The notes below the pieces were generated by a model. It saw only the letters and a program-made list of their open reading frames with translations, was not told the DNA's origin and ran no database searches. Positions 29,701-56,900 of a DNA stretch of 64,000 nt are shown here, piece after piece. Position 1 is the stretch's first letter. Every line of letters begins with the position of its first letter. This stretch comes from Capitulum mitella (lineage: Eukaryota; Arthropoda; Thecostraca; Pollicipedomorpha; Pollicipedidae), in contig CP099842.1 in NCBI GenBank assembly GCA_030062745.1, positions 21,795,822-21,859,821 of the forward strand, read 5' to 3'. The position numbers and the translations under genes were made by a program.

Positions 29701-31755
29701 CCTCAGCTTTCCAACGTCGCGGTCCGCTTACCTCAAAGAGCCAGGCAATGTCCCGCGCGTGCTACGGGCTAGACTTGACACAAAACTGCGGTACCGTAAA
29801 TACGAGCGAGAAGGCACGAGCAGATGCAGCACAGACCCGCGAGAACACAAGTCAGGCTGCAATGACGGCTCCTCTCTGACCCCGTGCGGCACTCACCCTG
29901 GGTCTTCTGCACCTCGAGCATCTTGCGCTCGTCCAGCAGGCGGCGGAACTCCTCGTACTTGTCCGGGAAGTCCTGGAAGAGCACGTCCATGACGTCGGCG
30001 CTGCGAAGCGCCGTCAGGCCGAGCTCGGCCTGCACGCCCGAGACGACCCGCTGCTCCAGCAGGAACGTGCGCTCCTCCGCCTCCACGGCGCGCCGCGACA
30101 GATCTGCCGGCCACAGAGCAGCCAATCAGAACCCGGCGGGACCCGCCGTCCACAGGGCAGCCAATCACAGCCCGGCGGGGGCTGGCCAGGCTCCAGATTC
30201 CAGGCAGATAGCCCTTCTACCACCACCGTCACCAGAGACGGCACTTTTGTTCCTACAGCCGCGGCTCGCCCGTATACCAGCCTGCTGCAGCTCACAGGCA
30301 ACAGCCTGCCACCAACGCTGAAGGGCGGACTCCTTACGACCACAGTATCCACGTCCGCCACCCACGGCCAGACACCCCGCGTGCCGGACAGGGCGCAACA
30401 CCGCCCACGCGGGCCCCGGCGACCGACGCAACCCAGGTCTGGTGTGACGATCCCTCCGTCGCAAGACAGCCAGGAGTCCTACCGCCGCAGCGTGTAACGC
30501 TCTGCACCACTGACCCGGGTAACGGCGCCGGAAGGAGACCAGGTCCAGGTAAGAGGAGACCTGCTCCTGCAGCATGTAGAGCTCAGCGCATGGGTCGTCC
30601 CGGGGCCAGCGGTACTCGAACAGCTGGTTGGCCGAGAGCGGCTGCTGGCTGAAAAACGGACCGCACCCGTCAGTGGGTGCGCACACAAGAGACAGACAAG
30701 ACGGGCGGGCCAAGTGGTTGGTTACTGGGGCTTAGGGGCGCACCGACTTCAAGGTCATTCGGCGCCCAAGGGCCAAGTGGCCAACGAAGTTACGGTGGTG
30801 AAAGGCGGGGGGCGAAATTGTCAAAAAATGGGATGGTGTGGAAAGATCGGGCAATTTCGATGCTGAAAACGGGGCATGAACGTCTGTCGGCACCCATTCC
30901 GAATAAACAGAATGGCCGGCCCAATAGCAGCGGGCGTACCCGAACGCAAGGCGGCAACACACAGGAAGAACGATGGCCACAGGTAAAACGGTTGTCCTAC
31001 AGACCGTGCCGTGTACATAAACCTAATATAAGAGGTTTCATGGAAAAGTGCTGGCTTTCGTTCTGAGCTTTCTACTCAGATGTGGAAAATTAAAAAGAAA
31101 TGTGGTATGTCGAACCAATACAGCATTTTTCAGAAAACCACGTCCATTACAAACAAATTTTGCGAGAGTACGCATGCATGAAATGACCTATCAGCCGTCT
31201 ACACTTGTTCCTCTTAACGGTCGTAAAAACTTTACCTATGGCATGCCAAATTTTATGCTCCCACACTAAGAATAAAGTTTTAGCTGCTCAGCGCGGATCG
31301 CCCTGAACAGAAATGCTGTTTACGAACATTTGGCCAAGGACTGCCCATGACAACTCCAAGCGAAACTAGAACGACATGTACATCCGCTGTCTCCTTGGTT
31401 ACTGCACCCAAAGAGACAATAAATGCGCCTTAGGCCGCTTCTCAGCCAAGCAGGAACGGCGATACCGACCTGCTGAGATCGAATATTTCGCTGCGTGCTT
31501 TGCGGGTGCCGCCGGCCGACCGGACGCTGCTCTGCGAGTCCTCGTCGACCGGCAGCGGCGGACGGGCGACGGCCGGCGGCGCTGGCGGCGATGGTGGCCG
31601 CGGCGGCGGCTCCTCGGACGACGGCGCTGCCCGTCCGGCCGCCGCTGGAGGCGGGGCAGGCTCCGCCGCCGGCGGGGACGCTTCCGGCTCCGGCTCAGGC
31701 TCCGGGTCCGCCACCGGCGGAGACGGCTCCGGCTCCGGCTCCGGCTCTCGTTCTG

Positions 31756-31786
<31 letters not shown>

Positions 31787-31895
31787 CTCCGGCTCCGGCT
31801 CCGGCTCCGCCGCGGGCACGAGCTCCACAGCGGGCGGTGGGGACGGCTCAGGTCCCTCCAGCCCCATCGGCTCCTCCGGCTCGACGGGCGGCGGA

Positions 31896-31948
<53 letters not shown>

Positions 31949-34900
31949 CGGCGGTGGAGGCTGCGCGTCCTCGGCGTCCATCATGGCGTTGTCGTCGGCA
32001 GGCGGCAGCGGCGGCACCGCCGTCGGTTCCGGCCGCCCACCGCGCCTCTTCCGCTTCTTCTCCCGCTCCGGCGGCTCCGGCGGCGGCGGCTGCGCGACCT
32101 TAGGTTTGGGTCCCGGGATCTTGGCGGGAGTGCCGTCTGCAATGGAGCAAAAGACAATGTGGCATTTGAACAGGTTTTCTGCTCAACGCCATATGATGAT
32201 GGCAAATTATGCATCACTGACCGATCTTCACATCGTGCTGTCTAGTATCTAGCGCGTACCGCTCCAAGTGAACTTACCATGGCAGAGTTTGTGGCAAAAA
32301 TGCATCATGCATCACAAAAAAACGTGACAAAGACTCACCTTTCTTCAGCCGGATTTTCTTAATGGGCGGCAGTTCGCCGGTGGCGTCGTTGGAGTCGGTC
32401 GACACCTGCCATACGCTGGCCTCCGGCTTGTCGTCCGGCTCGGCGGCCGGCTCCACCTTCGGCACAACCGGCACCGGCGGGGACGGCTCGGCCACCGGCG
32501 GCGCGTCCGGCGGCGGCCTCTTCCGCTTCCTGCCCGGCTTCCCCTTGACCGGTGGCACCGGCGGGGGCGCGGCCTCCGGTGGCTTCTCCCTGGACGCAGC
32601 GGCAGCGCGCGCCTTGGCCGCTGCCTCCTCCTTGCGGGACGAGCGGGCTGGCCTCTCCTCACTGGCCGGCGCAGAGCGTACGCGCTCCTCGGCCAGCCGG
32701 GCCTTGGCGTGCTGCACGCGCCGTTGCTCCATCTCCTGCCGTTCGTCCTCGGACAGCTTCTTCTTGCGCGGCCGACCGCTCTTCCGGACCGGGTCGGCCG
32801 ACGGTTTGGGCGCCGGCGGAGCAGCAGAGGCCGCGGCCGCAGCCGGGGCTGAGGCCGGGGCTGGGGCTGGAGCTGGAGCTGGAGCTGGAGCTCGAACTGG
32901 TGCCGGGACTGATGCTGCCGTCGGCACAGGCTCCCCCGGCCGCGGGTGTTTGCGCGGCCGGCCGCGCTTTCGCTTCACGGGCACGGCGGCGGCGTCCGGC
33001 ACCGACGCGTCCGAGACGACGGGCGTGGCGTCCGAGCTGGCCGGCGTGGTGTCGCCGCCGGTCGGAGCCCCGTCCCCCACCGACGTCTCGCCCTCGGCCG
33101 CCGCCGGCGCCGACGCCGCCCCGCCCGTCGGAGCGGCGGCGGCGGCGTCCGCGGCGCGGCCGTCGCCGGCCGCAGGCGCGTCCATCACCACCCGGCTGAG
33201 CCGCACCACCGCCTCGGGTGCCGTCTCTTGCAGGAAGGCGTCGATGGCGGCGATGCCCTCGCTGTCGCGTGACGTCTGCCGCCGCGCCCGGCCGACGGCC
33301 GCCTCCTCCTGCGCGCCGCCGCGACGCGGCGAGCGAGCCGACTCCGACCGGGGCGACCGGGGCGACTTGGACGGATCGGAGCGAGGCGAGCGGGCTGACT
33401 CGCGCCGCGGCGAGCGGCCCGCCTCGGCGGCCGGCCGGCCGGCGGTGCGAGGCGGCTCGGCCGGCGCCAGGTCGCGCGGCGAGTGGCGCCGCGGCCGGCC
33501 GGCCGACTCGGCGCGCGCCGCCGCCGGAGACCGCGAGCCGGCCTCGGCCGCCGCGGCCGCTGCGTCCGGCGGCGGCATCTCGTCACGGACCTCGGTGGCC
33601 GTCGCCGGCTCCTGGTCGCCCTCGGCAGCGGCCCGCGCTGGCGCCGGCGCCGGAGACGGGCTCGACCCGGCCGCCGGTTGGTCAGGGGGCCGCGCAGCCG
33701 CGCAGGGAGCCTGGTCCGCCGCGTCGGCCGCCTTCGTGTCTGCAGTGGGCGCTGGGGCACCAACCGACGTAGCTTCGCTGTCGGGATCGTCACGGGTGTC
33801 GCCAGAGGTTACGGGAGTTTCATCGGCCTCGCTGACACGTGCCGACTGCTTCGAGACGTCTTGGGGAGCCGACGTCGACAGCGTTATATCACCCCCGCCG
33901 CAGCTTTTCTCCCCAGCGATGAGGCTGACCAGACGCTCCGACCCAGAGACCGGGTTCTCCTCTTTCGCCCACTCCGACGGAGCGCCAGAGGACTTCTCGC
34001 CCCTGTCACCCGCCGCAGAGTCATTGGAGAGCTGCGCCGATGACGGCTGTTCCGGTTCCGAAGGCAGTTTGGCCTTCATCTCCGAGGAGGACTCGGCCGG
34101 TGGCTTCTTCAATCGCTCAGCGGATTCCTGAGAGGAAGCCGCAGCGGGCGTCCCTCCCGGCGTCTCGGCCTGGGTCTTGACGGCCGACTCGGGCGCCGGC
34201 ACGGCCTCCTCGCCGGCATCAGCCGGCGCTCTGAAGCAGTGCTGGTCGGACGCCTCGACAGATGGCTCTGCGGGCGGCTGGACGGACGGCCCGCCGGGCG
34301 GGGGCGGGGGCAGGGCCGGGGCCGGGGCGGCGTCCACAGGCGGTACGTCCGGCGCCTCTCCCGCCCCGGGCGGAGAGCCGGACGCCTCAGCGTCCCCCGA
34401 ACTCTGGCACGTGCCCAGTTGCTCGCCGCCCAGCCCGGCGAAGTCGCCCGAGCTGACGGCGCCGCCGTAGCCGTTCAGCGAGTCGTCCGCGTTGTCGTGC
34501 GAGTCGATCCGCGAGTCGGCGTTCTCCAGCGAGTCGAGGCGCGAGTCGGTGTTGTCCACAGAGTCGGTGCCGTGCGAGTCGATGCGCGAGTCCTCGTCGA
34601 GGCAGTCCAGCACCGGCCGGGGCGCCAGGTCGTCGTTGATGTGCGAGTCGATGCGCGAGTCGGTGTTGGAGTCGTCGGCGGCGTTGGAGACGAGCACGTC
34701 GCTGCTGCCGCTGACGGCCGGCTCGGGCCGCGGCGGCGCGCGCGACGTTTCCTCCTGGTCCCCGGGCCCCGCCGCCACCGCCTCCGAGCTCTGCTGCTCG
34801 CTCAGTTTGCGCGCCTCGGCCGGCGGCCGGCGGCCGGACGACGGCCCGGCCACGGCGGTCGCCGGCGAGCCGGGCGAGCTCGCGGAGCCCGGCGAGGCGG

Positions 34901-35990
34901 GGGAGGCCGGCCGGGCGGCCGCCGCCGGCGCAGTCCCGCCGGCGTCCGGGCTCAGCTCGGCACGCTCCTCCACGACGCTGGTCGAGATGCCGGCCTCCTC
35001 CGAGTCCTGGCGGCGGGAGGCCGGCGGCGGCACCGTCTCGCTGGTCGAGATCTCCTCGTCGAGGCGCGGCGCCTTGCCGGCCGACGAGGCGCAGTCGTCC
35101 GAGTCGTCCGAGTCGGAGTAGTCGGGCACCAGCGCCGGCCGCTTGCGGCCGGTGCTGCTGCTGGCCGGCCCCTCGTCGCGCGGCCCGGCCGCCGTCCGGC
35201 TGAACGTGGAGTCGGCGCCGCCGGCGTGGCCCGGCGAGCGGCTCTCCTTGCGCACCGAGCTGACGTCGGCGCCCTGCGAGTCGGCGCCGACCGGGCTGCG
35301 CGCGCTGCCGCGGCCCGCCGAGCCGGACACCTCCTGGTGCTGCGGCGTGGGCGCCAGCAGCGGCGAGAGGCGCGACGAGCCGGAGATCTCGCCGTGCTGC
35401 GCGGTGGCGGCCGGCGTCCAGCGCGGCCGCGCCACGCCCGAGCTGGAGACGGCCGCCTGCTGGTCGCCGTTGGGCCGCCGCGGCGTCGGCCGGCAGTCGG
35501 CGCTCGACTCGGGCTGGTCGGGCGGCGGCCGGGGCCGCGGTCGCGGCGCCGGCGGCGGCGCGCCGGCCGCCGGCGCGTCGCTACCCGCCACTTCCAGCGC
35601 TTCAGCTTCCGAGTCGTGCCGGATGCGGCCGCTCGGCGACGAGCCGACCCGCGCACCCTCGTCCGGCTCGCAGGCGTCGCAGCTGCGGCGCGACTGGCTC
35701 GACGACGGCTCGGCCGACCCGGCGGCGTCGGCCAGCCGGCGCGCCGCCGCCGCGCCGCCGGCGTCCGACGAGCTGGCGGCGGCGGCACCGCGCGCCGGTG
35801 CCGCCTGCGGACGGCGCGGCGGCGAGTCGGCCTGCGCCTCCGAGTCGGGCTCGGGCGGCGGCGAGCGACGGCCGCCGGCGTGCTGATCGCTGGACTCGGG
35901 CAGCTCGGGGGACGGCCGGCGGCGGCGCGCCGGGCTGAGGCCGCGCCGCGGCTCCGTCGATGTGATGGTCGAGTCGGGCTGGTCCGACAT
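23551..35990 (-). CDS. PHF10: SAYP/PHF10 (e(y)3)-type PHD-finger subunit of PBAF/PBAP chromatin remodeller, 3' end missing
   Basis: Nine coding exons were assembled from GT-AG sites with compatible phases: 35990-32339, 32136-31470, 30648-30515, 30103-29897, 29527-29278, 29035-28913, 25500-25360, 24212-24051 and 23701-23551. They total 5,487 nt, or 1,829 codons without a stop. The order is a disordered Ser/Pro/Ala-rich N-terminus with three AT-hooks, a proline and Glu-Pro tract, the SAY domain (about 1440-1680), then PHD1 (1708-1755) and PHD2 (1758-1800) with all C4HC3 ligands present. Known members are signature subunits of PBAF/PBAP SWI/SNF complexes that bind chromatin in the nucleus; Drosophila SAYP also links to TFIID. 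The last exon ends in phase 0 at a GTACGC donor, so at least one more 3' exon is needed and I could not find it. The family call is firm. The length resembles insect SAYP rather than vertebrate PHF10. Splice sites are inferred without transcripts. Confidence 0.9.
24051..24212 (-). CDS. PHF10: SAYP/PHF10 coding exon 8: rest of PHD1 and start of PHD2
   Basis: The exon is 162 nt (1 + 53 codons + 2), with a GGCCAG acceptor and GTGAGC donor. PHD1 ligands C1726, H1731, C1734, C1752 and C1755 fall in CDSSGHPQC and [11 protein letters not shown]2 ligands C1758, C1761, C1773 and C1776 fall in CMTCG and [10 protein letters not shown]. It closely matches PHF10 YPWQCMECKTCIICG and MMFCDMCDRG. Confidence 0.93.
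24236..24476. repeat. 40-bp minisatellite in SAYP/PHF10 intron
   Basis: About six copies of a unit containing CCGACCCAGGTCA and GCAGCGGTCACCGCGGGTCA. It begins about 20 bp from the acceptor of coding exon 8 and ends beside the family B transposon. Confidence 0.9.
24484..25000. mobile_element. hAT-like non-autonomous element, family B, in SAYP/PHF10 intron
   Basis: Perfect 10-bp terminal inverted repeats TAGAGCTGAA and TTCAGCTCTA bound 517 bp. Seven or so GGATTC hexamers follow the left end. The interior matches the element at 37476. The flanking 8 bp do not clearly match, so the duplication may have decayed or the insertion may have been rearranged with the neighbouring minisatellite. Confidence 0.75.
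25360..25500 (-). CDS. PHF10: SAYP/PHF10 coding exon 7: Ser/Glu linker and first half of PHD1
   Basis: The exon is 141 nt (1 + 46 codons + 2), with a CCGCCAG acceptor and GTAGGC donor. A Ser/Gln/Glu-rich linker precedes PHD1 ligands C1708, C1711 and C1723 in [18 protein letters not shown]. The human counterpart has CGICLKG and LIHCSQC. The short spacing between the ligand pairs is tighter than in human PHF10. Confidence 0.88.
25501..28802. other. PHF10: SAYP/PHF10 intron between coding exons 6 and 7
   Basis: This is most of a 3.4-kb intron. It has a very GC-rich block at 26.5-28.0 kb and AT-richer flanks. I see no further exon or mobile element in it. Confidence 0.6.
28803..28912 (-). repeat. 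PHF10: 35-bp tandem repeat containing duplicated splice donor
   Basis: Three copies of a unit of 34-35 bp lie immediately 3' of SAYP/PHF10 coding exon 6. On the minus strand each begins GTAACG or GTAATG preceded by CCAG, CCTG or CTCG. The array therefore repeats the exon 6 donor. Confidence 0.85.
28913..29035 (-). CDS. PHF10: SAYP/PHF10 coding exon 6: end of SAY domain plus acidic Ser tract
   Basis: The exon is 123 nt (1 + 40 codons + 2), with a CTGTCCAG acceptor and GTAACG donor. It encodes [16 protein letters not shown], corresponding to the ELRYLPLNT motif of PHF10, followed by an acidic serine-rich stretch. The donor lies at the edge of a 35-bp tandem array that repeats a near-identical donor (see findings), so alternative 5' splice sites are possible here. 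Confidence 0.87.
29278..29527 (-). CDS. PHF10: SAYP/PHF10 coding exon 5: SAY domain
   Basis: The exon is 250 nt (2 + 82 codons + 2), with a GTTTCAG acceptor and GTACGA donor. It encodes an Arg/Ala-rich helical segment beginning [15 protein letters not shown] and ending [14 protein letters not shown]. The ending matches the PHF10 segment containing PVALIPGQYQDYYKRY. The split arginine codon (AG|A) is completed in the next exon. Confidence 0.9.
29897..30103 (-). CDS. PHF10: SAYP/PHF10 coding exon 4: SAY domain middle
   Basis: The exon is 207 nt (2 + 68 codons + 1), with a GGCAG acceptor and GTGAGT donor. It encodes the segment running from [15 protein letters not shown] through [13 protein letters not shown] to [12 protein letters not shown]. 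It matches the PHF10 motifs [17 protein letters not shown] and DKYEEYR. The phase joins exon 3 at the conserved YPD. Confidence 0.9.
30515..30648 (-). CDS. PHF10: SAYP/PHF10 coding exon 3: start of SAY domain
   Basis: The exon has a TTTTTCAG acceptor and a GTCAGT donor, and is 134 nt (1 + 44 codons + 1). The peptide contains [21 protein letters not shown] and SFRRRYP. These align with the human PHF10 segment containing YEYQWP, QYMIQEQISEYL and SFKRKYPDL. This is one of the strongest homology signals in the window. A 52-bp retroposon sits only about 70 bp upstream of the acceptor. Confidence 0.9.
30718..30769 (-). mobile_element. Ultrashort retroposon (52 bp, SINE tail domain)
   Basis: The element is flanked by perfect 11-bp duplications GGGCCAAGTGG (30707-30717 and 30770-30780). 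On the minus strand it opens TTGGGCGCCGAATGACC, folds into a GGGCGC/GCGCCC hairpin and ends CAGTAACCAA. It corresponds to the 3' hairpin-tail domain of the SINE at 54242. It sits in the SAYP/PHF10 intron between coding exons 2 and 3, close to the acceptor. Confidence 0.8.
31470..32136 (-). CDS. PHF10: SAYP/PHF10 coding exon 2: basic patch, 25-proline run, Glu-Pro repeats
   Basis: The exon starts after a TTGCAG acceptor, completing the GAC codon begun in exon 1, and ends at a GTCGGT donor leaving AG. It encodes 221 whole codons: a basic segment (REKKRKRR), an uninterrupted run of 25 prolines (31886-31960, encoded by GGC-type repeats on the plus strand), then a long (EP)n tract. The end (IFDLS) joins directly to the conserved start of the SAY domain. 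The homopolymer is probably variable in length between individuals. Confidence 0.85.
32339..35990 (-). CDS. PHF10: SAYP/PHF10 coding exon 1: long disordered N-terminus with AT-hooks
   Basis: This exon encodes 1,217 residues plus one base and ends at a GTGAGT donor. The start is the ATG at 35990-35988. An in-frame ATG at 36014 lies upstream of a good acceptor (exon begins at 36002), so it would be intronic. The sequence is rich in Ser, Pro, Ala, Glu and Arg, with many Ser-Pro sites and RS-like SPRR/SPRS motifs near residue 900. The motif DSRIDSH and variants recurs four to five times at about residues 437-497. Three AT-hook-like motifs lie near residue 1003 (KRGRPRK), 1067 (SGRPRKKK) and 1147 (KPGRKRKR); these would bind the minor groove of AT-rich DNA. 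High GC makes long shadow reading frames of about 600 codons on the other strand. Confidence 0.88.
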
Positions 35991-37475
35991 CGCCACTCCC
36001 TCCTGCGCACGCACAGACGCGGCTCCGTCAGCACGTCAAACGTGGATTTGAACCAGTGAAAACGTTTGAAACATGACTAGGGTCAAATATTTTCGCAACG
36101 TAAATGAAGAATAGACGTGGCTCGCCTTGCGGCACTGGTGGTGCTCAAAACTTTGTTTTCTTAATCAAGCAAAACCATTGCGGAAATGGCAGTTCTCCAA
36201 CGTCTCCTTTGCAGACTCAAAAAAGTGCACATATATGTTGCTGTGTGATCGAATGTAGTTTGAGTTTGCTAAGGCATGGAAAAAATACAAAAAAAGTATG
36301 ACCCTAAAGCATCCAGAGAAACTTCATGGCAGTCCAGTGCCTTTTAATCTCTTAGCTGTTTTTATCTTCTTTTGGCAAACCCCCCATTTTCCATTTGGTG
36401 ATTTTCATGTTCACATATTTTAGTCTGATGACCCAAAATACTGAGGAAACAAATTTCATGACTGGCTGCTTTCCTTGGAAGGTATCTGACGTTCACGTGT
36501 GCCAGCACTGGCCATGTCATTGTAAAAAGCTTCAATCTTTCTCTCGTTCTCCCCTGATGTTTTGCCCCCCCCCCCAAAAAAAAAAACTGACGCTTACGTA
36601 AAACACGTTCAAACGCTTTTACGCATCATTCACCTGTCACCTGGAGTAAGTGCCTATTCGTCGAACATGGGGATGCACGTACACCCTCATAATAAAGAAG
36701 AATTTAGGTTAAGTCTATGGCGTTGCATGGAAGGAAAAGACTTCAAAATGGCATTTGCATCCACATGAATTTTTGGAACGTTCTGACCTTGTCTTCAATA
36801 GCTTCACTGTCACTATCTCCACATGGAATTTCAGCATCCACCTTTATTACGCCGATTCAAGTGCCTCTTTGTCGAAAAGTTTTCTGAAATATTCTCGTTG
36901 TCACTCTCCTGGTCACATTGGCCAGCAGCTGGCGATGACAATATATCGACCTCTCGCACTTGTTCCAGTTCGGCCCTTTCTGTGTCTCTAGCAGACTTAA
37001 CAGCACGGCAATATACGTCATCGCCTGCAAAACGTCCCGTCTATCCCTGTACTAAGTAAAGGCCGTATATGTTCGTCACGCATTGCGTAATTTAATCCTC
37101 TTAGGCCAAGACTGAGTTCGCTGCGTCGACGCCGTCATTTGTAGTCTGTTTTGCCACCTGGCAAATGATCCCCACGTCGTCATCAAACCGGTGGTCTTCC
37201 TTCCCGAACGTAAAACCAATGCGCAGAATCGCCAGCTATTTTCCACCCACAGTCCAGTGCGCACATGGATTCGACATGTATGATAACATCCAAATAACAG
37301 GCCTATGGCTAGGAAGATTTTGCCATCCAAGAAACGCATTGAAGATCGGGACATTTTGCCTCCTCCCCTCCCTGCCTATTCCCTTCATGTAGCTCCAATC
37401 TGCACACGATTTAATACTGTAGTTCAAAGTTTCAGGAAAACCTACATGTCTGTCCAAAACAAGACAACTGGCAAT

Positions 37476-38951
37476 AAAGCTGAGGATTTGCATGCATTCT
37501 GGGTTTCGGATCCTATGGTGGATTGATTCGGATTCGGATTCGGATTCGAGACTCGAATATATTCAAACAGACTGGAATCTCTGCATCAAAATCTCGAAAT
37601 TTTTAACGTCGTATAGTTCCCATTTTAAAACCAATTTCATTGGTATCTGGTTGATTGTTTTCAACCCTTCTGCCAATGGCGCATTTCTAACTCGGCCAAG
37701 ACAAAAATGGAGGGGCGATGAATCTGATAAGGAATGGGGAAAGTGCATGACAAGGTGGGCATGGTCAAGGTCGGGCATGGGCCCGACCTTTCCCTTAAAT
37801 ACCTGTACTTGCATAAAACAGATATCTGACCTATCAACAGGCCAACAATCGCGTCGAGTAAGCCGTGCCCGGCACGATAATTGTCGGACATCAGGATTTT
37901 GGAAATTCTCGCATCGTGGCGGCGTGAAAACAGTAGTTACAGCAGTTGGATTCCACAACAAGTAATACAATGCAATAAAATCCAGGACGGGCGACTTAGC
38001 CCGATGCAGCACCAACATATACGTTTTACATTTAGTTTTCACATTTACTTTTACATTTAGTTTATTCAAAGAAAATTTAAGCCTACAGTATATTTCGACA
38101 CATTTACTGACACATTTAAATGATGATTTTCAGAATTCGATTTTCTGGTTCCCTGTCCCTTTAATGGGTCGGCAGGTGTGCCCTTCCATGTCCATGTGAT
38201 CCAGTCACGTTATTACTAAACCTGAACATTTATTTCCAGTTGGACGAACGTCTTCAACCCACCCATTCACGTTGCACCACACCACTCCTCGCTATTTTTT
38301 CCGGGGGGGGGGGGCAACCAACTACCAGTGTTAGTATGCTGTGAAGTCCAGAACCTCGACAAGGAAAGCTAGAATAACTAGTAGCGTCCATCACGGTCCT
38401 GGGGCACTTATTCTAAACACTTAACAAGACTATGAGGGAGAAAAAAACAATGCAAAACTGAACAATCAAGCAAAAAGAAAGTATAATAAAATGTGCCAGA
38501 AATAAATCTCTAGTGTTCTTTCCACTAACCAAATAAAGATTAGATGATGCATAACAACCTCAAATGCACACGAGTAACAATGTTTTACTTCCATAAATAA
38601 TAAAAAATTTTGCTGTTCTTTTTCATGAATAACTTTTTGATTTGTTTCTCTCACATTACTTTTTACTTGGTACCTAAGCTGTAATAACAAGCACAACACA
38701 ACTCACAACATGCAATGCAAAACAAATGTGAGTGAGGTGTGGGTGTAATTTGTGTAGACATCAACACCGTCACCGCAACAGAGATCCAGCTGAAGAAGAC
38801 AACGGTAGACGAAATGAAGATAAAAAGCATAAGATGGCAAAATGAGATTCAAATCCTGATTTTCAGGGCTGGAATCCTTTTTTTTCAGGATTCGAGGGTT
38901 TGCATGATCCGAATATATTCGAATCCTACGACTCCGAATCCTGAGCTCTTA
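37476..38951. mobile_element. hAT-like non-autonomous element, family B, with 8-bp TSD
   Basis: Perfect 8-bp duplications CTGGCAAT (37468-37475 and 38952-38959) flank a 1,476-bp element. Ends are AAAGCTGAGGATT and, read inward from the right, TAAGAGCTCAGGATT. Near the left end are several GATTCG repeats. The sequence TGGCGCATTTC near 37680, the following AACTCGGCCAA and a later ACATTTACTTT tract are shared with the 517-bp copy at 24484. The block of about 38.15-38.85 kb is absent from that copy, so it is either a secondary insertion or lost there. Confidence 0.75.
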
Positions 38952-39435
38952 CTGGCAATTTGTTTTTTTTTATACAAATTGTACCGAGCAGGCCAATGTT
39001 CCCACACAGGAACAAGCAAGTTCTGGGGTACTGTTGTAGGCAAAGTCTCCATTTTAAGCAACATTTTTGAAGTCATGTAAACGGCAAACTGAACGAGTTT
39101 CAGAAATGCTGGTCTGTTTGTGTGGAAATTGAAGCAACATTCCTGAAATAAATCTAAACCTACCTCAGTGTCTGAGGCTGTCAGTTTTACTTATTTTGAA
39201 CATGGTAATGAAGCACTTTGCTATGGAGCATCCACATGAAAATCTGGCCAATGGTAGATCATTTGAAACATAAACAGACAAGCATGGACTGTCCATTCCT
39301 AGCAAAATATCTAGTTAGTGCAGGCCACAAAATGTGGTGTTTCCGTTAGACAAGTTGCTGGACCCCAATGGAGCATGGGTTAGCCTTGTTCTGCATCCAA
39401 TTCTGAACTGACTTTGGTGACTGCTTCGTCGCCTG

Positions 39436-46500: not shown

Positions 46501-48660
46501 CCATAGGGTTAATGTTAAATGTGGCCAGTTGAGGGGCATGCTGCCTTCGTGCTCCCCCCATTCTGTCGTATGGTTGCTGCCACCCCATCAGTTTTTGTGA
46601 TAATGTGAAAGGTCTTAACATTAACTTTGAAAGTATTGGGGCTAGGACCCTGAAATCTTAGGCATCTTGGTTTTCATTCATTCTGCATTATTTTAAAACT
46701 GTTGAGTTCAGGTCAGATCATGAAGATATGTAATTCTCAGTGGTCTGCAAACTTATTTTGCACAAAAATGGCACCATTTTTGTGGTTACATGGTGCTCTT
46801 GGCACATTTCATGTTTCCTTGGGTTGAACAGCTAACATCACAGTGACAATGTAGCATGATCTGAAAGTCACTTGTGAAGTTCACATCAGGTCATTGGCCT
46901 TAATTGGCCCTGGTTGACCTTGGTCTCATTTCAATTTTTGTAGGCTTATTTCCATGTGTATGGAGGCAAATCACATTAAAGAGGTTACTTGGGGTCAAAC
47001 TAGTCGTAAATTTACAGCATCTATGGGCCCTAGTAAGTTCAAGATCCTCTGGAGGTCAGCTGAGGTCACTGAACTCGGACGACTTCGGATTGCCTTGAAT
47101 TTCGGATGAAACATACGGAATCAGCCAGAATGGTGCAAAGTAGATGTCAAATTCGACATCAGTGGCCCAAAATACGGCATGTTCGACACGTGGTCAATAA
47201 AGGTCAACCGAGGCCAACCAAGGTCACTGACCGCGGACAGTCTCGGATGATTTACTGACCTTTGGCGGAGTTGGAGTTTTTTTGTGAGTGTTCGTGTCCA
47301 GTTTTGCATAATTCCGCATCGTTCTGACTTATCCAGGCCCATTGTATAGCAGCTAGAGGGCCCTAGATTTCATACCATTCCAGCTAGCCACAGGATTTTA
47401 CCTCAGCTGACCTATTTCATTTACTGGAAGTAAGGACGAAGGGTAGCATTGTATTGGCAAAGGTCCATTTAGTCTTATGCTTCTTACCCAGAGTCTCTAA
47501 CTGTTAAATTATGCATTGTGGCCTTTCAAACAAAATTTTGAGTTTTTCCCCATCTTGCATCAATGGTCTGACTTGGGAATCCATCAGCTGACCTGAAATC
47601 CTAAAACTGAAACCACTGGCATGCTGTCATGCCGGGCAACAGGCTCATTTTTGTTTCGCGGCTCTAGTCCATTTGAGAGCGAGATGGCGTGGGGTCCTAC
47701 GCACCCGTCCCCCTCGCCTGAGACGTCAGTAAAAAAGCACACGTTCGCCGAGGATTAAACATATGTTTTTATCTCAGTTGTCTAGATTGTAGCTTGCAGT
47801 ACAACAGTAATGATCCTTAATATACGCTAGGGTTGAGTTTATGTTTACAGGGTTTACATTGATGTTCTTTCAGTTTATTGTGTCCTATTCAGCCATGTCA
47901 GACTTTGCGCGACGTGACAAGCGGGTGCTGGCCATTGAATGTTAGCACTGGACCCATATTGTGTCACATCAGCAGATGACAGGAATGTAGTTTTTTATTA
48001 ATCGCATGCCAATGCCTCCAGGTTTTCCTTTAGTTAATCTTGGAATGCGATCAATGGGCGCCGAATGACCCTGCAGTCGGTGCGCCCCTAAGCCCCAATA
48101 ACCAACCAACCAAGGAATGCGATCAGTACTGGTCTTAACCATCCAGTCGTATTCCCGGAGAAATTGACCTGCGAAGCATTCCCTGTGTAATAGACTTTCC
48201 GGTTAGGAAGATGGATTTAGCAACATGAATGTCAAGAAAGGTTTTTGTGGGGGGAGCAATACTGACCAGGGCGGTTTTAACCCCTTCCCCCTCCAAGCAG
48301 GTTTAGTTCCTTTGGATTTAGTTTTCCAGCTAGAAAGATCAGCATCATTGTTTTTCAACACAAATATATTTTGAGCCAAAACATCATTTTTCAGTTTGGT
48401 AGATAATGTCAGATACGCTTACCCGACATCCACCGCCTTGAGGCTGGAGGGTTCGTACGGCATGCCGCTGTAAAAAAAGGTTTCTGAAAAAAAGGGTACA
48501 AAAGGCAGAAAAAGTGTTCCACGATTACCACTTCTGCGGTTTAACTAAGTTGTGGATCGGCCCTTACCAATGTTTGACAAGTCCCGTGCCTTTCAGATAC
48601 GGCTTCCGTGAAGGCACCCAGCCCAAGCGTCAGGTGAAGACTGCTGCCGCCGCTAAGTAA
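43589..48660 (+). CDS. RPL37: 60S ribosomal protein L37 (eL37)
   Basis: There are four coding exons: 43589-43591, 43793-43928, 45978-46062 and 48597-48660 (288 nt, 95 residues plus stop). Donors are GTGAGC, GTGAGT and GTTGGT; acceptors are TTTCAG, TTCTAG and TTTCAG. The first coding exon contains only the ATG, the arrangement I recall for human RPL37. The protein opens [18 protein letters not shown] and carries the eL37 zinc finger C19, C22, C34 and C37, then [19 protein letters not shown]. It binds 5.8S/28S rRNA in the large subunit. Length and sequence are normal for the family and no lesion is seen. Introns of 2.0 and 2.5 kb are long for a ribosomal protein gene. I looked for intronic box C/D snoRNAs and found none I could support. 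Confidence 0.97.
47021..47370. repeat. Internal duplication in RPL37 intron 3, possible MITE
   Basis: GAGGTCAGCTGAGGTCACTG (47052) and GAGGCCAACCAAGGTCACTG (47210) begin two related segments of about 40 bp. GGGCCCTA occurs at both outer edges (near 47026 and 47358). No target duplication was found. Confidence 0.4.
48054..48113 (+). mobile_element. Ultrashort retroposon (60 bp, SINE tail domain)
   Basis: The element is flanked by perfect 12-bp duplications GGAATGCGATCA (48042-48053 and 48114-48125) in RPL37 intron 3. It opens ATGGGCGCCGAATGACC and ends AATAACCAACCAACCAA, with the same hairpin and nearly the same 5' end as the copy at 30718. Confidence 0.8.
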
Positions 48661-48678
48661 ATGCCCTTCGCGATGATC

Positions 48679-48691
48679 AATAAAAAATAAA
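48679..48691 (+). terminator. RPL37: RPL37 polyadenylation signals
   Basis: Two overlapping AATAAA hexamers (48679-48684 and 48686-48691) lie 19-31 nt after the stop codon. They give a very short 3' UTR typical of ribosomal protein mRNAs. Confidence 0.85.
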
Positions 48692-51600
48692 ATGTCTGCG
48701 CAGTTGTTTTCTGAAGATTGGCCACAGCAGTTGGTATGGTTTTATCCCACCCCTGGAAGGAGCAGGTGTGTGCCTTCTAGCTGTCGTTACGATCTTGCGG
48801 TCTTTTTCTGCTGCTCCTCCGGAAAGCTGTAGTACGTGAGCACAGTACTACACCGTATGGCTTACCCAGGTCCGCAGATCGAGTAAGATGAAGATTTGGT
48901 GGGCCTTTGCTTGCCCAGAAGAGCATAGGTGAGTAGATCGACTGGAGGCGAATTTTGGAAGAGATTGCTCACGTTTAGTCACGGCCGGCCTGGGCGGGGT
49001 GGAGTGCACAGCATACCGTGCGGACGTGTTGAACTGGTTTGTGGTGGTCCCACGACTGTTTGATACCGACGTAGACGAGGCCCCGGGTGTGCGGTCTAGG
49101 AGGGGTCCATAGCACGGGCCGGCTGCTGGCCTCTGCGAGAGGCTCTGAACTGCGTGCAGCTCCTATTCAGACCGGCTATAGCTTCATCAACCGCACCTGA
49201 CGCTAAGCCGGGTTTGTGGACCTCCTCTTTGTGAAGTTACAGTGGCCGTTGCGGAAGAGCATCTGTTTTGGACGGCGGAATGAGCGCATAGCATATGTTC
49301 CGTACTGTTTAGGGACGTCCTTACGTGACAGAAACGAAGCCGGACTGCGGCCAAAAGATCTAGAGCCAAAAGGGAAACATTTCGGTGGGGGAATCCAACG
49401 TACTCTTGATGTATGAGATATGAAGTAGAAGTATGGAAACGGAAGTCTGACGACTGCCTCGTAATCAAATGCAGCATCATTTAGGGTTTACATTGCGGTT
49501 TACAGTACATTGCAGGTTTGTAGTGCGTGGCATTTACCCGTCATAGAGTTAACAAGCATAACTTGTTACAGGCCCGTCTCCTTTTTTACTTTGGGTTTAC
49601 TTCGGATTTGTGACTAGCAAGAAATTTGTTACGGAATTGCTTTGCGTTGTGGCAACGCTGGCAAAATTCGTGCTAACCTGCGTTGAGGTCAGTGTGCCAC
49701 AGGAAATGCGCTTGGAAGTCTATTGGCAAGTTTCCGTTGACTGACTGGTGCCGCTTGCCCCATGGAGGTTCATGAATGGTCCCCTCAGCATCATTGAAAG
49801 ATTTGGCCACAGGCCGGAGGAAGGTAGGACAAAAAAGTGTACGCAACACCAAAGCGCTGCTCTCGTTTTCCCGTGCCAGAGGCATCAGCCACATTTGCTC
49901 CCCGCCAAAACAGTCTGCGCAGCTAGCGGCCATTCCTGAAGCGTCGTTGGAAGTGATGTTTCCTCGAAAACAGCTGTTTGTCGCCTGAAGCTTGCCTTTT
50001 CGCGCGTCCTTCATTCACCCTTGCTTCTCCCCGGGACGCCCCGCGTCGTGATCCGGTCCAGTGTCCCTAAAAAAAAAACTGGGTCCTGGCGGCTTAGTCT
50101 CATCGACCTCGCATGTCGATTAAAGCGTCTCGATATGACACATCACTCCAGTCTTGCACGTCCATCTCCGTGGATTCTAAATATAGCAGCTCCTTTTTGG
50201 CGGTCGAGATCTCGAGCTCCGTTTTCAAACCATTGTGTGATCCTCGACCCCGACGCCAGCATGAGCTTAAGAGATTGTAGCATGGACCTGAAACCCTGTG
50301 GCCGTTTCCCTGTAGACTGTGAACAACAGGTTAGATTTGCGGTGTCCATCTGTCCCTGCAGGAAAGTAAGTAGGATTTACTGATAAATGCAAATCATTGC
50401 TGCAGAGCGATTCCGATATATCCATCGAGAACCTAGGCGTGGGAATGCCCACGGAGCCTTTCATTTCATGTGGGTGTGGAGCCGTTCCTATGACGGATGT
50501 AGGCAAATGTTTTAAGCAGTTTTTCATGCAGCGCCATTATCCTACGTTATTTTTCCATGAAGCATAGGATGCAGCTTCATCCCCAGGTGGCATGTTCAAT
50601 TTACAACCAGAAGGGAGCGGGGATTGCCAACTTTGTGGGTTGCTGATTCTATCACCGAGCCTGTGAAGTGCCCAGGGGCGTCTGATTTTTGGGAAATTCA
50701 TTGTGCTGAGGTCCCAAACTTCCGGCCTCGGAACTTCCTCTGCCTCCGCGTCAAATTTTCTCGGGATCGAAGGTACATCCAGCTGCTCAGAGAGCACTGT
50801 TCGCTGGAGCCTCTCCCAGGCCTCAGCAATACAGCATGCCGCCGCCGAGCGTCGCTGCGGCATATCGAGGTCATGCCGCGTCAAGCCGCACTGCATGGTA
50901 GGGTGAAGCATACATCAGATGTTCACGGACGGTGGCAGGCGTGGGCGGCGCTTAAGCGAAACTAGGGAACGCCTCCACCCCCCGTTTGTGAGGCTGGACG
51001 TCCGATCTATGTATATTTGTTTGACGCCTGTAAAGAAATGCCATACGTTGGACATCGATCACCATCCAGATTTGTAACTACGTCGCCGTATGCCCAGGTG
51101 TCGTTTAGACATGGCTGGAGATTTCCGAAAATTATGGGGTAGTGGTCCACATAGGATTTCAAACTGTTCCCTTCCAGTCTTTGTCCAGGCACGTCGCCAG
51201 GATTTTCCTTGGGGGAGAAGTGTCAGATTCAGTCATATGCCACTGGCATGACAGAATTTATAGGAAAGAGCAGCATTGTTATGTAGTTGACCTTATATTT
51301 AAGATACAGTAGAGATGTTTGCTTTTGCATCATATATGTGGTCACTGCTTCGTATTCCTGCGAAATCGATAAGTACCTAATGCAGAGTGCTTGGATCGGC
51401 GAGCCATGGCCCCCATGCCCCCCTGACATCGTAGACCTAATGTTAAAACCCCTAAACATTGGAGGGGTCCCGACCCCTGCCCTCACTCCCCGGGACCGTC
51501 AGCCGTGAAAGCCGTGGGTTTCGAGTGAACCAGCATTTCAGAATGTCACTATCTTGAAAAGGTGAAGAAACTGACTTGTTTTAGTAACGTTTTCTACCTT

Positions 51601-52074
51601 GCTCTACACCAGTTTATCAGTTTTGAAGTTCTCCGGGGAACCGTGAGATGTCAGTCGAGTACAGACGCTGGGACACGGAGTCCCTGCAGGTCAAATATAT
51701 TTCGCGAGGACGCATTTAGTACGCCACTGCTCTTCAAACTTGACTTCTTAGGATAGTGGACGGACAAAGTGGAAAGTAGATTTCCCCGCACTCGAAATCT
51801 GGCGGGGATTTTTTGGATGTTCTTATTACTACACATTGGATCGAGCCGCACTTTCCTTGCGTTTTACGCAGTCAGTGGATATTTACTGAAATCTTAACTG
51901 AAAATCCAGTCTATTCAATTTTTACCAAGTCAGTGTATGCATGCCCGACGACCAGCTGTCCGGACATAGATACCCACGTGTTTGTGACTTCATTTCCAGC
52001 GTTCATTATTCAATAAATAACAGATTCGGTATCCAACCAAAAAGATCTTGACCACAAAGCCATTTTCAAGAGAA
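48692..52074. other. Intergenic, between convergent RPL37 and HMGB
   Basis: 3.4 kb with only short random frames and one family A element fragment near 51188. Confidence 0.6.
51188..51250. mobile_element. End fragment of family A element
   Basis: CAGGCACGTCGCCAGGATTT followed by a G-run and GTCATATGCCACT matches the inward reading of the right end of the 62651 element, including GTCATATGCCACT. I did not find a convincing partner end, so this is probably a decayed or truncated copy. Confidence 0.5.
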
Positions 52075-52080
52075 TTTATT
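52075..52080 (-). terminator. HMGB: HMGB polyadenylation signal
   Basis: TTTATT on the plus strand reads AATAAA on the minus strand about 405 nt after the HMGB stop codon. It is the first clear signal downstream and implies a 3' UTR of roughly 420 nt. Confidence 0.6.
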
Positions 52081-52484
52081 ATGATGAGACCCGACGAAAC
52101 TATGATCTATGCATGTCGAACCTAACTGCGATGAATAAAATGCAATGATGAAACTGGGAGCGTCACGACCAGAGCAGCCATCGCAGGTCCGTAGGCCAAC
52201 TCCTGGTGCGGATCCGCCCCGGCGGACGGCGCTGAAGATGAAGGCGGTCTCGCTAAATAAATAGGCCCAGTTTCGGGCCGGCCGTTCCGAGTGGTGAGGA
52301 CGGCACGGGAGCCAACCAATCCGACATAGACGTATCCGGCCGCGATCTGCCGCCCCGCCGCACACGCAAGACCCACTCTCCATGGTCACCGTGCCGGCCC
52401 CACGGTCTCCAGAACAACTGTCTAGTGTTTGTACACGCACGTGCGCGAGCCGGCTCGCACGACGGAACGCGGTCAGCGTCCCGT

Positions 52485-53964
52485 TTACTCGTCGTCATCC
52501 TCCTCGTCATCATCCTCCTCTTCCTCCTCGTCTTCTTCAGGAGGGGCCTTACTTGCGCCGCTCTTGTAGGCAGTCATCTCCTGCAGACGAATGCAATTAC
52601 TGTTATAATTAAAAGCATCACGCATTACGATCGATGGGATCAACACAGCAAACCACATGAAGAACTGTTATGCGCGAGTTCCTCGATATTATAAACCACT
52701 AAGCGTGATCTATACAAACATCCCATGTAAACTCTGCAAAAAAATTATCAATAACCGACTGAGCATCTGCATCTTGCATGGTACAAGACGTTTGCAATTC
52801 ACTTGGTGCCAGTACAAAGAGCAGGTTGTCAACACAGTGCACGAACATAGTGCACGTGTGCCGCAAACAACGAAACAATCTGTATCAACAGTAAAACCGG
52901 GAGCATCGTATTCCTTACCCGAGAGTATCTGGCTTTGTCCTTCTCGGCCATGGCCTCATACTTTGCCTTCGTGGCATCGTCGGCTTCAGACCACTTCTTT
53001 CCCAGGGCCTTGGCCAAATCACCGACGGTGTGGTCTGGATGAGCGGACCTCAGAGCCGGTCTTTCATCATTGCAGAACCAGAAGAACGCCGAGAGGGCGC
53101 GCTTGGGAGCGTTGGGATCCTTGGTCTTGCGTTTACCCTTGCCCTTCTTTCCGCCCGGCGGGGGGACATAGGTTTGCATCTCCAACTCAAATCTCTTCTT
53201 GTCCTTGTCTGCCATGTCAACGAAACGCTTCTTCTCCTTGTCGCTCATGACCTGATGTAAAATAATTGACAATCACTCCACACTACAAAACTTTAACATC
53301 GACGTACATACTGAACGGACAATAACGCACACGTACAAGGATCCGGACGGCTATCACTGTGACTCAATGTGTTACAATGGCTGGCAAATTTCCTTCGGTG
53401 AAGTGCAAAGATAAAAAACACTCATAGCTTTGCAGCATTTTTGGGCCCAAAATCCCCAGTTACCAGGATTTTTTTCCTATACTGGAGGGATCTGCCCACT
53501 TCGTCTCACAGACTACGCAAGAAATCATGCGATCCGCCACGAGAGAACGTGATGATTAAATGATTATAATGATTAAATGATGATTAAATTAAATGTTCAT
53601 TGGTACCGCTAGTCAAAGCGCCAACATTCGTGGAAAATCCGTCTCACTCTTTGCGACCTCGTTTTCCCGCGTTTCTAAAACAGATACTCGACGAGACCTG
53701 CACCTGGACGTGGGTTAGGCACCACGACAGAAAGGCTTGGCCCTCTAGCTCTGAACAGAGAGCTCGTGGCGAGGTCTTTGGTCACCGTTGTACCAGCCCT
53801 ACTAAACGCCATACCTTCCATCGCTCAGAGCATTTCTTCGAGAACGCAGAGAAAGCAATGGCTTCATTTGGGTGCTTCTTGCGGTGCTCCTCTCTGCACG
53901 TCTGAACAAAGTAAGCATAAGAGGACATACGCCCACGCGGCTTGTCGGCCTTGGCACGAGGCAT
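52485..53964 (-). CDS. HMGB: HMGB-type high mobility group protein, two HMG boxes and acidic tail
   Basis: Coding exons are 53964-53815, 53251-52919 and 52580-52485, giving 192 residues plus stop. Donors are GTATGG and GTAAGG; acceptors are ACATCAG and CTGCAG, both at phase 0. Box A starts [20 protein letters not shown] and continues through [12 protein letters not shown]. Box B contains [20 protein letters not shown] and [18 protein letters not shown] basic linker GKKGKGKRK separates them, and the C-terminus is a run of about 17 Glu/Asp. HMGB proteins bend DNA in the nucleus and assist nucleosome and transcription-factor assembly. The domain order and size match animal HMGB1-3 and related invertebrate proteins. 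The start is the first ATG of the exon, which opens at 53974 after a TTTTTTTTTCAG acceptor, so a non-coding leader exon lies upstream. Confidence 0.96.
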
Positions 53965-53974
53965 TTTTGGAGTC

Positions 53975-56900
53975 CTGAAAAAAAAACACGTTTGTCAATA
54001 TCCGTTCCCAAACATTAATGATGTAAGTCCGATTTATATTGGTTTACCATTGTCGGCCTATCCAGCACATTAATTTTTGCCTTCGCTTTTCAGTTTCCAT
54101 TTTCCTTTTTCTGGGGGGATGCGTTGCGTCCCAGAAATTAGTTAAGTATATGTCGACTTGGGTGGGGGAATCAATATGCTACCAATATATCGCAATCGTT
54201 ATCATACTGACTGGTTGAGCGTCAGATTACTTGTATTCATGTGTTGGTTGGTTACTGGGTTATTTAACGACGCTATCGACTGCCAAGGTCATTGCGCGTC
54301 GCAACTTCTCACACTGGTTGTCGCGAGGGACGGCAAAATGTCTGTGTTAACTGGACTCGAACCATAGACCTTTCGGTCACAACGCGAGCATGGTAACCAC
54401 TACACTACACCGCCCCTTGTATGCATGCGTCTCTTCATGCAAGTGGCAAAAAAGCGTAAATGCACATAACCCTCCAAGGGAATTGGAACCCGGCCTCGCT
54501 TGAACCTAGCGACATAACACTACAGAATCGCGCGCCTGCGGTGTTCAGCGCCGTCAAGTAAATTGCAATTCCCTTGACATCTTGTGCCAATATTTCACTT
54601 TCGGGGTGGCGTTCAGTTACGATTGAAACGTTGCTGATCTCCGTCTTTCTTAATTTACGTTTTCGATTTTTCAACGTGACCCTTGCGTACGTGAAAGTAA
54701 ATGAAATGCAATTTACATACGAAAGATGTTCGTTTCCTCCTATGTCCCACCAACTTCTCAATCCCCTTTCCGAAATTCATTCAATCCGAAAATCCGGAAT
54801 TAAAAAAAACATTCGGAGACTAAGGTAAGGTACCAATAGCCTTAAACTGATATCATTCAAATAATAATAAAAATAACGACTAACTCATCCTCTATTCCGA
54901 CCAAGAAGGGCGTTCCTTTGGCACAGTGTTTTCAAACGACAACTCACTGGCATTTAACATATTGAAGAACAGCTCTTAGGTATTCCTGTTTTCCGAAGCT
55001 GGTTTTTACACCGACAATGATCCATCACAATGAAATGTTCCCATACGACATTTGTAACTACATATCAGTCAATCCAGCTTGAATCAGCGTAGGATGGTGC
55101 TCCAGTGCGATGGATGCACGTGTCCTGCACGGACACGGTTAATTTTGTATGAGCCAATGTCGGTGTGTTGTCTTTCCGAAAAACCTATCCCTGACGAAGG
55201 CCCGTGCCGAAATATGGGAAGAAATAATTTGTTTTCGGCTCTTTCTTACATTCTGCGCCTAAGGCTTACCTAGTCGCAACAGAAACACTAAGTCAAGCGC
55301 AACAGCACATTCAAATTTGGGGACTTGTTTAATTCGCACGACCTGTTCGGTTCCTTCGTGGAAACCAAAGGTCTAGTAGTTACGGTACACGAGAGAAATC
55401 TAAGCCTAAAAATGGGCATGAATGCTTAAAACGAGAAATATCTCATCGATCACACGTCATATCATGGTCATTTCCAGCTTCAATGACGGTCTGGCTATCG
55501 TCAACACATTTCCGTTACATTTTTGTCATACCACCACGTCGTCGTTGTGGAACATTCATTTGCTTTCGCTGAATCTCACCTATCAGGGTCACACTACAAA
55601 AATGACGACAATTTGTTAAATGACGCCCCCTCCCTTGACTGAGACTCTGAAATAACAGAAATGAAAAAATCTGTAGAACGAGTAAGTCTAACCTAGAAGT
55701 AAACTTTGGCTATTTAAAGTCTCTAGCGCAAACTTCGACGGCATTTTTAGGCGAAGAGTCCCCGACACGGCAGTTTACGGAAATCCACTTTGTATTTAAT
55801 TTTACGAATTTCATCTGGGCGGTTTAAAAAGCCAAACTGCATCAGTTTTCACATGCTCCATCATCGTTTCCTGTCCCAGCATTCTAAATTTGATTGTACA
55901 CATTCTGCTCGTTGACAAAAACTGACTGCCCTCTTTCTCGCCTTCAACTGCTGCTTTACATCTCCTAGCCTTCAACATGCTGCTATACATCTCCTAGAAC
56001 AATGTGTGCATTCAGAATCGCCCTCCACCGTTCCTAGCGCAAGCCATCTGACGTCGGCATGTGGCGCCGCCCGCCCGGCCGGGCACCAGGCGTCACCACC
56101 TGCTCCTAGCCTGCCGCCGCAGCCCCGCCACGCAATGCCGGTCCGACCGCCCGTCCCTTCCCCGTACCGCCAGCCAACCACCGGCGGCCGACCGCCAGCC
56201 GAGGGAGCGGTGGCCGCCGGCCGCTGAGCCAAGTCGGACCCGCGCCGGCGATCACGCTGTCGCCAGTCGGTCCGGCCACCGCCATGTTGGATTCCCGGGG
56301 AAATATCGCGATATAACGATCCGCCGCCGCCAGATGGACTGCTTTAAAAACGCCTCGTGCAAAATCCTGCTTACGTAACCCTTGCGACTGTCGTTACTGA
56401 CAGGGACGACCCCAAGCATTCCAGTAAGGATGGTCATCCAACCGATCTAAATTTAACTTTTTCTCACTATTTGAACAAAGAAAATCGCCTTGGGCAAAAC
56501 GAAAAACACATTCAGCTGACTGAGAAACGACCAAGCTGCATCCGAACCTTTGCCGTTCACGATACACCCAAATAAACGCCCTTTCCAATTTCCCACTCAA
56601 CGCCAATACCAAAAGCATGCGAGGCAATGGCAAGAGCGAAGCCAACGGGCGGCCAATGGATCTCCAATGCCCGTAGCCCGTGGGGCCGCCGGGGCCCTGA
56701 AGCATCCAGATTAAACGTGGATTTCTCCATCAAACAAAGATAACCCACCAAAGGAAAGCCATTCCCAAAACAAGGAGGGATGAAACTTCACATTTAAAAT
56801 CTAAGAACGCCACAAGACTCGTAAAGGCTCCAGAAATTCAAAGTCAAAAAGCACCCACGGCCGCTCCCATGCTTTCACAATGGCAGCCATACAAACGCAA

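What the first reader, a model, noticed from the sequence alone, without database searches (positions are those of the whole stretch)
30707..54427. Ultrashort retroposons sharing a hairpin-tail domain with a tRNA SINE, with compensatory base changes
Seen: insertions of 52 bp (30718-30769, minus) and 60 bp (48054-48113, plus) each have perfect 11-12 bp target-site duplications and begin at the same point (GGGCGCCGAATGACC). Random 5' truncation would not be expected to give the same start twice. The same domain forms the 3' end of the 175-bp SINE at 54242-54416, which has its own 11-bp duplication. Stem pairs GGGCGC/GCGCCC in the short copies become CGACGC/GCGTCG in the SINE. Two of six pairs changed on both sides, while the loop AATGACC..TG..AGTCG and the tail TAACCAACCAA stayed. 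Inference: the hairpin plus tail is the recognition module for a partner LINE reverse transcriptase and can be mobilised without a tRNA head, which would make it among the smallest retroposons.
Basis: partly seen in the sequence, partly recalled or inferred. Interest (0 to 1): 0.72.

Follow-up and report, generated by a model that had tools for sequence, protein, structure and literature searches.

The report
Ultrashort retroposons from a LINE tail
A hairpin-plus-tail piece of about 50-64 bases from the end of a larger jumping gene has been copied around this genome many hundreds of times, nearly always starting at the same base, which makes it an unusually small mobile element and a handle on how such genes are recognised and copied.

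Summary
The two short insertions (target duplications 11/11 and 12/12) and the SINE (10/11) share a hairpin and AACC-repeat tail. The parent was found: an endonuclease + reverse transcriptase + RNase H LINE (at least 6.4 kb) ending in the same hairpin and tail about 130 nt after its stop codon. So the short copies are the LINE's own 3' end, not beheaded SINEs.

The strong result is the 5' end. An exact 26-base tail pattern occurs 1152 times in the genome. Of the first 62 listed places (one chromosome), 53 begin with the same T, one base outside the stem; 2 lack the T, 3 are cut inside the hairpin, 4 carry LINE upstream. Genome-wide the start motif has T before it in at least 924 places, another base in 34. 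Duplications are of normal length and 5' microhomology is at chance, as published for full-length L1/Alu.

I favour a short RNA with a fixed 5' end, probably a LINE RNA fragment, copied to its end; the enzyme dropping off at the domain edge is the main rival. The SINE shows no dominant class of this kind. Stem covariation rests on two families only.

The parts
30718..30768 (-). ultrashort copy 1: starts at the T of TGGGCGCC (30768), hairpin 30736-30767, tail TAACCAA; one extra T at 30769
   Evidence: loop variant CTTGAAG, also seen in the older LINE copy L166
30770..30780 (.). target-site duplication of copy 1, element's 5' side (CCACTTGGCCC read on the minus strand)
   Evidence: 11 of 11
30707..30717 (.). 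target-site duplication of copy 1, element's 3' side
   Evidence: 11 of 11
48055..48113 (+). ultrashort copy 2: starts at the T of TGGGCGCC (48055), hairpin 48056-48087, tail (AACC)n; one extra A at 48054
   Evidence: the 60-mer 48054-48113 has at least 40 copies of 100% identity elsewhere
48042..48053 (.). target-site duplication of copy 2, 5' side (GGAATGCGATCA)
   Evidence: 12 of 12
48114..48125 (.). target-site duplication of copy 2, 3' side
   Evidence: 12 of 12
54242..54416 (-). tRNA-headed SINE with a sister hairpin (CGACGC/GCGTCG, 54268-54301) and the same AACCAACC tail
   Evidence: 40 copies scored of 777 first-look candidates in the genome
54417..54427 (.). target-site duplication of the SINE, its 5' side
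   Evidence: 10 of 11
54231..54241 (.). target-site duplication of the SINE, its 3' side
   Evidence: 10 of 11

Best explanation
The short insertions are complete retropositions of the 3'-terminal module of an APE-type, RNase H-bearing LINE: one unpaired U, a two-part hairpin of about 32 nt, a linker and an AACC-repeat tail, about 50-64 bp in all. The LINE enzyme takes this module as its template and primes on the nicked target by target-primed reverse transcription (inferred from the duplications and the shared 3' end). The 5' end is fixed because the template RNA itself begins there: most likely a 3' fragment of the LINE RNA, left by a nuclease that cuts or stops at the base of the hairpin, which the enzyme copies to its end. 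Shown here: the parent LINE, the duplications, the nearly exact 5' end, the full-length-like junctions. Inferred: the short RNA and the recognition of the hairpin by the enzyme.
For: 53 of 62 copies, not selected for their 5' end, begin with the same T. Start motif genome-wide: C, G or T followed by T before GGGCGCCGAATGACC in 924 places, a base other than T before it in 34. The base before the T is random (A16 T15 C12 G10 of 53). Duplications found in 54 of 55 copies tested, 11 bp or longer in 50 of 55. In 40 of 50 anchored copies the duplication abuts or overlaps the T; it overlaps in 15, as chance predicts. PMC2912911 (passages) reports microhomology in nearly 80% of 5'-truncated L1 and chance level for full-length L1 and Alu. 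Among the 62, none ends 3-95 nt upstream of the T by LINE homology, so the lengths are two-peaked. LINE 3' end and ORFs. The SINE, with a sister hairpin, shows no dominant hairpin-start class: 2 of 28 fetched copies begin near the hairpin, 3-4 nt further out (read by eye).
Against: No RNA data were available, so the short RNA is not seen. No Rfam family matches the LINE 3' end or the short copy searched (4 sources, E up to 5). A start with U is unusual for a primary transcript (recalled), so processing must be assumed. PMC2912911 also finds only weak microhomology dependence for 5'-truncated Alu, so chance-level microhomology does not exclude truncation of an RNA copied in trans; its figures are for human and chimpanzee L1, not this LINE. 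In 10 of 50 copies the duplication stops 1-4 bases short of the T. A minority starts one base later (6 of 11 fetched non-T copies). The SINE may depend on a different LINE, which weakens that comparison.
Confidence: 0.5

Rival explanations
1. Abortive reverse transcription: the enzyme holds the hairpin, copies through it from full LINE RNA and nearly always falls off one base beyond, where its specific contacts end; the few that go on give longer LINE copies.
For: The end lies exactly at the domain edge; longer copies of the same LINE exist (4 of 62) and vary in length: of those probed, two reach 4 kb or more, L047 about 1.7 kb, L046 about 0.5 kb, L041 less than about 0.4 kb. A possible helix just upstream (UAACUUUUUU/GAAGAAGUUA) ends at the base before the start in some copies. 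A minority class starts one base later.
Against: Near single-base precision and chance-level microhomology differ from truncated L1 copies. SINE copies show no such dominant class (2 of 28). The upstream helix is predicted in some LINE copies (L049, L029, L083) and not in others (L043, L067), shows no compensatory change, and the 3' UTR folds no better than shuffles (z +0.73).
Confidence: 0.35
2. Independent ultrashort retroposon family with its own master gene or genes, transcribed from a flanking promoter, using the LINE enzyme in trans.
For: Short copies far outnumber LINE copies (53 to 4 in 62 places); 47 of 62 places share one loop and tail variant. The loop variant CTTGTAG, in 5 of 62 places, was not seen in any of the LINE copies fetched.
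Against: No head is present and no internal promoter was recognised (by eye; no promoter scan was run). Two loop variants of short copies also occur in LINE copies (CCTGCAG in young ones; CTTGAAG in the older L166 and in window copy 1 and L060), as expected of a LINE by-product through time.
Confidence: 0.1
3. Ordinary random 5' truncation of LINE copies.
For: Random truncation does occur at low frequency: L052, L068, L085 are cut inside the hairpin; in the separate sample chosen for identity, L031 begins about 5 nt and L035 about 60 nt upstream of the hairpin; L047 is about 1.7 kb long.
Against: 53 of 58 short copies share one base; a uniform spread over the 57-base domain gives P about 4e-87.
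Confidence: 0.01

Closest known systems
SINE/LINE pairs of the 'stringent' type (for example the eel L2 pair and tobacco TS/RTE; PMC3747384, passages read)
   Same: A 3' hairpin or 3' end and short repeat tail shared with an autonomous LINE; that paper reports compensatory stem changes in a plant L1 lineage
   Different: No tRNA, 5S or 7SL head; the element is the LINE tail alone, about 50-64 bp, with a nearly exact 5' end
5'-truncated LINE copies (PMC3747384: various positions, 100-1000 bp; PMC2912911; passages of both)
   Same: Colinear with the LINE 3' end, flanked by target duplications
   Different: One fixed 5' base instead of a spread; microhomology at chance instead of nearly 80% in L1
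Tailless retropseudogenes of therians (PMC5322556, abstract and outline only)
   Same: Many short retrocopies cut at defined positions tied to RNA structure
   Different: As I understand the abstract, there the tail is lost and many kinds of RNA are used; here the 3' end is intact and the 5' end is fixed
Non-autonomous R2 and R2/R1 elements (PMC3414825, title and start of abstract in a search listing; the name SIDE is recalled)
   Same: Short derivatives that depend on the parent's 3' RNA-binding end
   Different: In R2 a 5' ribozyme makes the precise 5' end; no ribozyme family matched here

Membership tests
SINE | short, non-autonomous, dispersed, flanked by target-site duplications | tested here: met
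   1152 tail matches; duplications in 54 of 55 short copies tested
SINE | RNA polymerase III head derived from tRNA, 5S or 7SL RNA | tested here: not met
   The element begins one base before the hairpin, leaving no room for a head; no Rfam match in short copy L030 at E up to 5. The same call also missed the tRNA-like head of the SINE copy in L014, so its sensitivity is limited
SINE | 3' end shared with a partner LINE | tested here: met
   60-mer identical in LINE 3' ends, e.g. L029, L043, L047
5'-truncated LINE copy | variable 5' end | tested here: not met
   53 of 62 at one base
5'-truncated LINE copy | excess microhomology at the 5' junction (as for L1) | tested here: not met
   15 of 50 with 1 nt or more, 4 of 50 with 2 or more, against nearly 80% for truncated L1; the same paper finds only a weak excess for truncated Alu
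APE-type LINE with RNase H (I group) | ORF2 with APE endonuclease, RT and RNase H | tested here: met
   Pfam PF14529/PF03372 and PF00078 on L130, PF00075 on L049; seen at two loci, not in one intact frame. Placement in the I group is recalled knowledge; no tree was built
Stringent-type 3' recognition | 3' hairpin needed for retrotransposition | not testable with these tools
   needs a retrotransposition or in vitro assay
Stringent-type 3' recognition | stem kept by compensatory changes | tested here: inconclusive
   2 of 6 outer-stem pairs changed on both sides between two family versions; only two families, no formal covariation test was run

The most novel reading that the evidence does not exclude
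A stable RNA of about 55 nt, trimmed from LINE RNA to one base before its 3' hairpin, is itself a retrotransposition substrate and has become the commonest young product of this LINE, so the minimal mobile unit of a LINE is its hairpin and tail alone, and it competes with full-length copying.
Probability: 0.45. Interest if true: 0.75.

Novelty: new variant of a known kind. Interest (0 to 1): 0.62.

Why it matters
What a stringent-type LINE needs on its template is usually approached by deletion assays. If the short-template reading is right, the genome has done that experiment many hundreds of times: about 55 bases suffice for complete target-primed insertion. The nearly exact 5' end makes a sharp question testable: does the RNA end there, or does the enzyme let go there? 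Either answer is informative, because the first means that RNA processing feeds retrotransposition and the second exposes a release step like promoter escape. Copies this short may also be missed by repeat annotation.

Tried and rejected
Ordinary truncation was rejected on the 5'-end table. A beheaded SINE was rejected because the stem sequence matches the LINE, not the SINE. A ribozyme making the 5' end: no Rfam match in the four sources searched. A second hairpin copy inside the LINE that could explain the end by template switching: none found in L130 or L049, though the LINE 5' end was not reached. An upstream helix as a stop signal: predicted in some copies (pairing probability about 0.75 in L049) and not in others, no compensatory change; kept as an idea. 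Formal covariation: not attempted, since variation inside each family is mostly decay after insertion and only two family versions were at hand. Literature: ten searches, of which eight listed papers and two found none; in the titles and abstract starts shown, some lists being capped, none described an ultrashort retroposon made of a LINE hairpin and tail. This covers only the held open-access library.

Not answered: counts for GTTATGGGCGCCGAATGACC (LINE 3' ends) and ATGGGCGCCGAATGACC, and a scan for further hairpin families, because the genome search machine did not reply.

Full report
What was checked. The window lies in a 477-Mb genome of 16 sequences. Copy 1 (30718-30769, minus) and copy 2 (48054-48113, plus) have perfect 11- and 12-base duplications; the SINE's is 10 of 11.

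The parent. A search with the 60-mer of copy 2 found at least 40 copies of 100% identity (40 scored of 581 first-look candidates). I fetched 20 of these 40: 7 of 20 carry a common upstream sequence, 13 of 20 do not. The upstream sequence is the 3' UTR of a LINE: in L049 an open frame with an RNase H domain ends about 130 nt before the hairpin. A longer copy, L130, has a first frame with zinc-knuckle-like cysteines (my reading; no Pfam match) and a second frame with APE-type endonuclease and reverse transcriptase. Of eight LINE copies probed 2.5 and 4 kb upstream, two (C4 and C2) match each other there, at 99.7% and 99.0%, and still at the first base of L130 (99.3% overall), so the LINE is at least 6.4 kb; its 5' end was not reached. 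Other copies are shorter and of varied length: L047 about 1.7 kb, L046 about 0.5 kb, L041 less than about 0.4 kb. The only copy of the hairpin in the LINE sequence examined is at the 3' end.

The 5' ends. The pattern GCGCCCCTAAGCCCCARTAACCAACC, chosen from the 3' part so as not to select the 5' end, occurs 590 + 562 = 1152 times, the reversed control 0 times. I took the first 62 of the 100 listed places, all on C1, in order: 60 newly fetched and 2 already held (L047, L048). Four of 62 have LINE upstream (L047, L059, L067, L083). Of the other 58, 53 have the T of TGGGCGCC before the hairpin; L062 has G and L092 has A there; L052, L068 and L085 are cut inside the hairpin (the script puts L052 with 'other base', its duplication shows the cut). 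L074 and L075 share duplication and flanks and are one event, so 52 of 61 independent copies. Leaving out L054 and L074 as well as the LINE and cut copies, the base at the start is T in 51 of 53 and the base before it is random (A16 T15 C12 G10). Genome-wide, GGGCGCCGAATGACC preceded by C, G or T and then T occurs 924 times, and preceded by a base other than T 34 times (C22, A9, G3); the count with A before the T was not obtained. Of 11 of those 34 that were fetched, 6 have a duplication ending directly at or overlapping the first G, and one (L166) is an older LINE 3' end. So a small class starts one base later. In the sample of 20 chosen for identity, L031 begins about 5 nt and L035 about 60 nt upstream of the hairpin, so other starts exist but are few.

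The junctions. A duplication was found in 54 of 55 short copies tested (L054 had none; the four LINE copies and L052, L068, L085 were left out). The lengths are 8-18 bp, 50 of 55 being 11 bp or more (the few of 8-9 may be chance), and 53 of 55 inserts between duplications are 50-64 bp. In 50 anchored copies the identity stops right before the T in 25, runs 1 or more bases into the element in 15 and 2 or more in 4, and stops 1-4 bases short in 10 (3 of 53 could not be anchored). The overlap is at chance level (15 of 50 against 25%, P 0.25). In the passages of PMC2912911 that I read, nearly 80% of 5'-truncated L1 insertions have microhomology, full-length L1 and Alu are at chance, and 5'-truncated Alu shows a weak excess. 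By that yardstick the short copies look like complete copies of a short template, though truncation of an RNA copied in trans is not excluded.

The SINE as control. Its tail pattern GCGTCGTTAAATAACCCARTAACCAACC occurs 34 times, control 0. I fetched 28 of 34; the other 6 appear as long SINE copies, the window's own among them. Read by eye: 13 of 28 keep a tRNA-like head or part of it; 4 (L139, L141, L149, L159) start near CATTTCGCCG, just after the tRNA-like part; 3 (L146, L156, L158) start a little further in; 3 are unclear or rearranged (L150, L162, L163); 2 (L136, L137) begin 3-4 nt outside the hairpin; 3 (L147, L152, L153, the last two sharing flanks) are cut in the hairpin's 3' strand. So a dominant hairpin start is a property of the LINE-type RNA and not of every RNA with this kind of hairpin. 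The caveat is that the SINE may use another LINE: none with its stem was seen in these copies, and no wider search for one was answered.

Covariation. GGGCGC/GCGCCC against CGACGC/GCGTCG: pairs 1 and 3 change on both sides. Variation within each family is mostly mutation after insertion and says little on structure. Two family versions give suggestive, not formal, support.

Mechanism. Shown: a LINE 3' module of about 55 bases inserted many hundreds of times, in the sample with target duplications and one start base. Inferred: copying by the LINE's own enzyme; recognition through the hairpin, as in the stringent-type LINEs reviewed in PMC3747384 (passages). Open: why the 5' end is fixed. I prefer a trimmed RNA template for its near single-base precision, full-length-like junctions and the SINE contrast. 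Drop-off of the enzyme at the domain edge is close behind. A stable structure that blocks a 5' exonuclease would leave such an end; that is recalled from other RNAs and is not tested here. An upstream helix that could stop the enzyme is predicted in some LINE copies and not in others.

Novelty. SINE/LINE pairs with shared hairpins are well known, and so are truncated LINEs. A dominant, nearly base-exact, headless class made of the LINE hairpin and tail alone was not among the titles and abstract starts shown by the searches I made, which cover only open-access papers. I file it as a new variant of a known kind.

Noticed in passing
L139, L141, L149, L159 (also L009:8122-8210): SINE copies that recurrently start near (GA)CATTTCGCCG, just after the tRNA-like part and upstream of a possible second small hairpin (CGCCG/CGGCG, by eye).
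   Followed up: partly
L074 and L075 (C1:9054605 and C1:9058452): Two copies about 4 kb apart on opposite strands with the same duplication and flanks: an inverted segmental duplication, not two insertions. L144/L145 and L152/L153 also share flanks.
   Followed up: partly
L029: The LINE 3' end is followed by sequence that matches LINE coding sequence, so one LINE seems to have inserted into another copy.
   Followed up: no
L049:1-1437: The 1.7-kb truncated LINE lies next to a coding fragment on the minus strand that resembles another retroelement (by eye).
   Followed up: no
L150: A SINE copy with what looks like an inverted head in front of the body, like the 5' inversions known from L1.
   Followed up: no
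L022:6871-6907: A diverged hairpin of the same kind without the AACC tail (81% match).
   Followed up: no
L055, L073, L081: Tails with a restarted TAACC unit (for example AACCAACCTAACCAACC), suggesting slippage or re-priming in the tail during initiation.
   Followed up: no
whole genome G000: 16 sequences and 477 Mb recall barnacles (a figure legend in PMC11331182, passages, draws 16 chromosomes for barnacle genomes; its own assembly is 512 Mb); this is a weak guess, the organism was not identified.
   Followed up: partly
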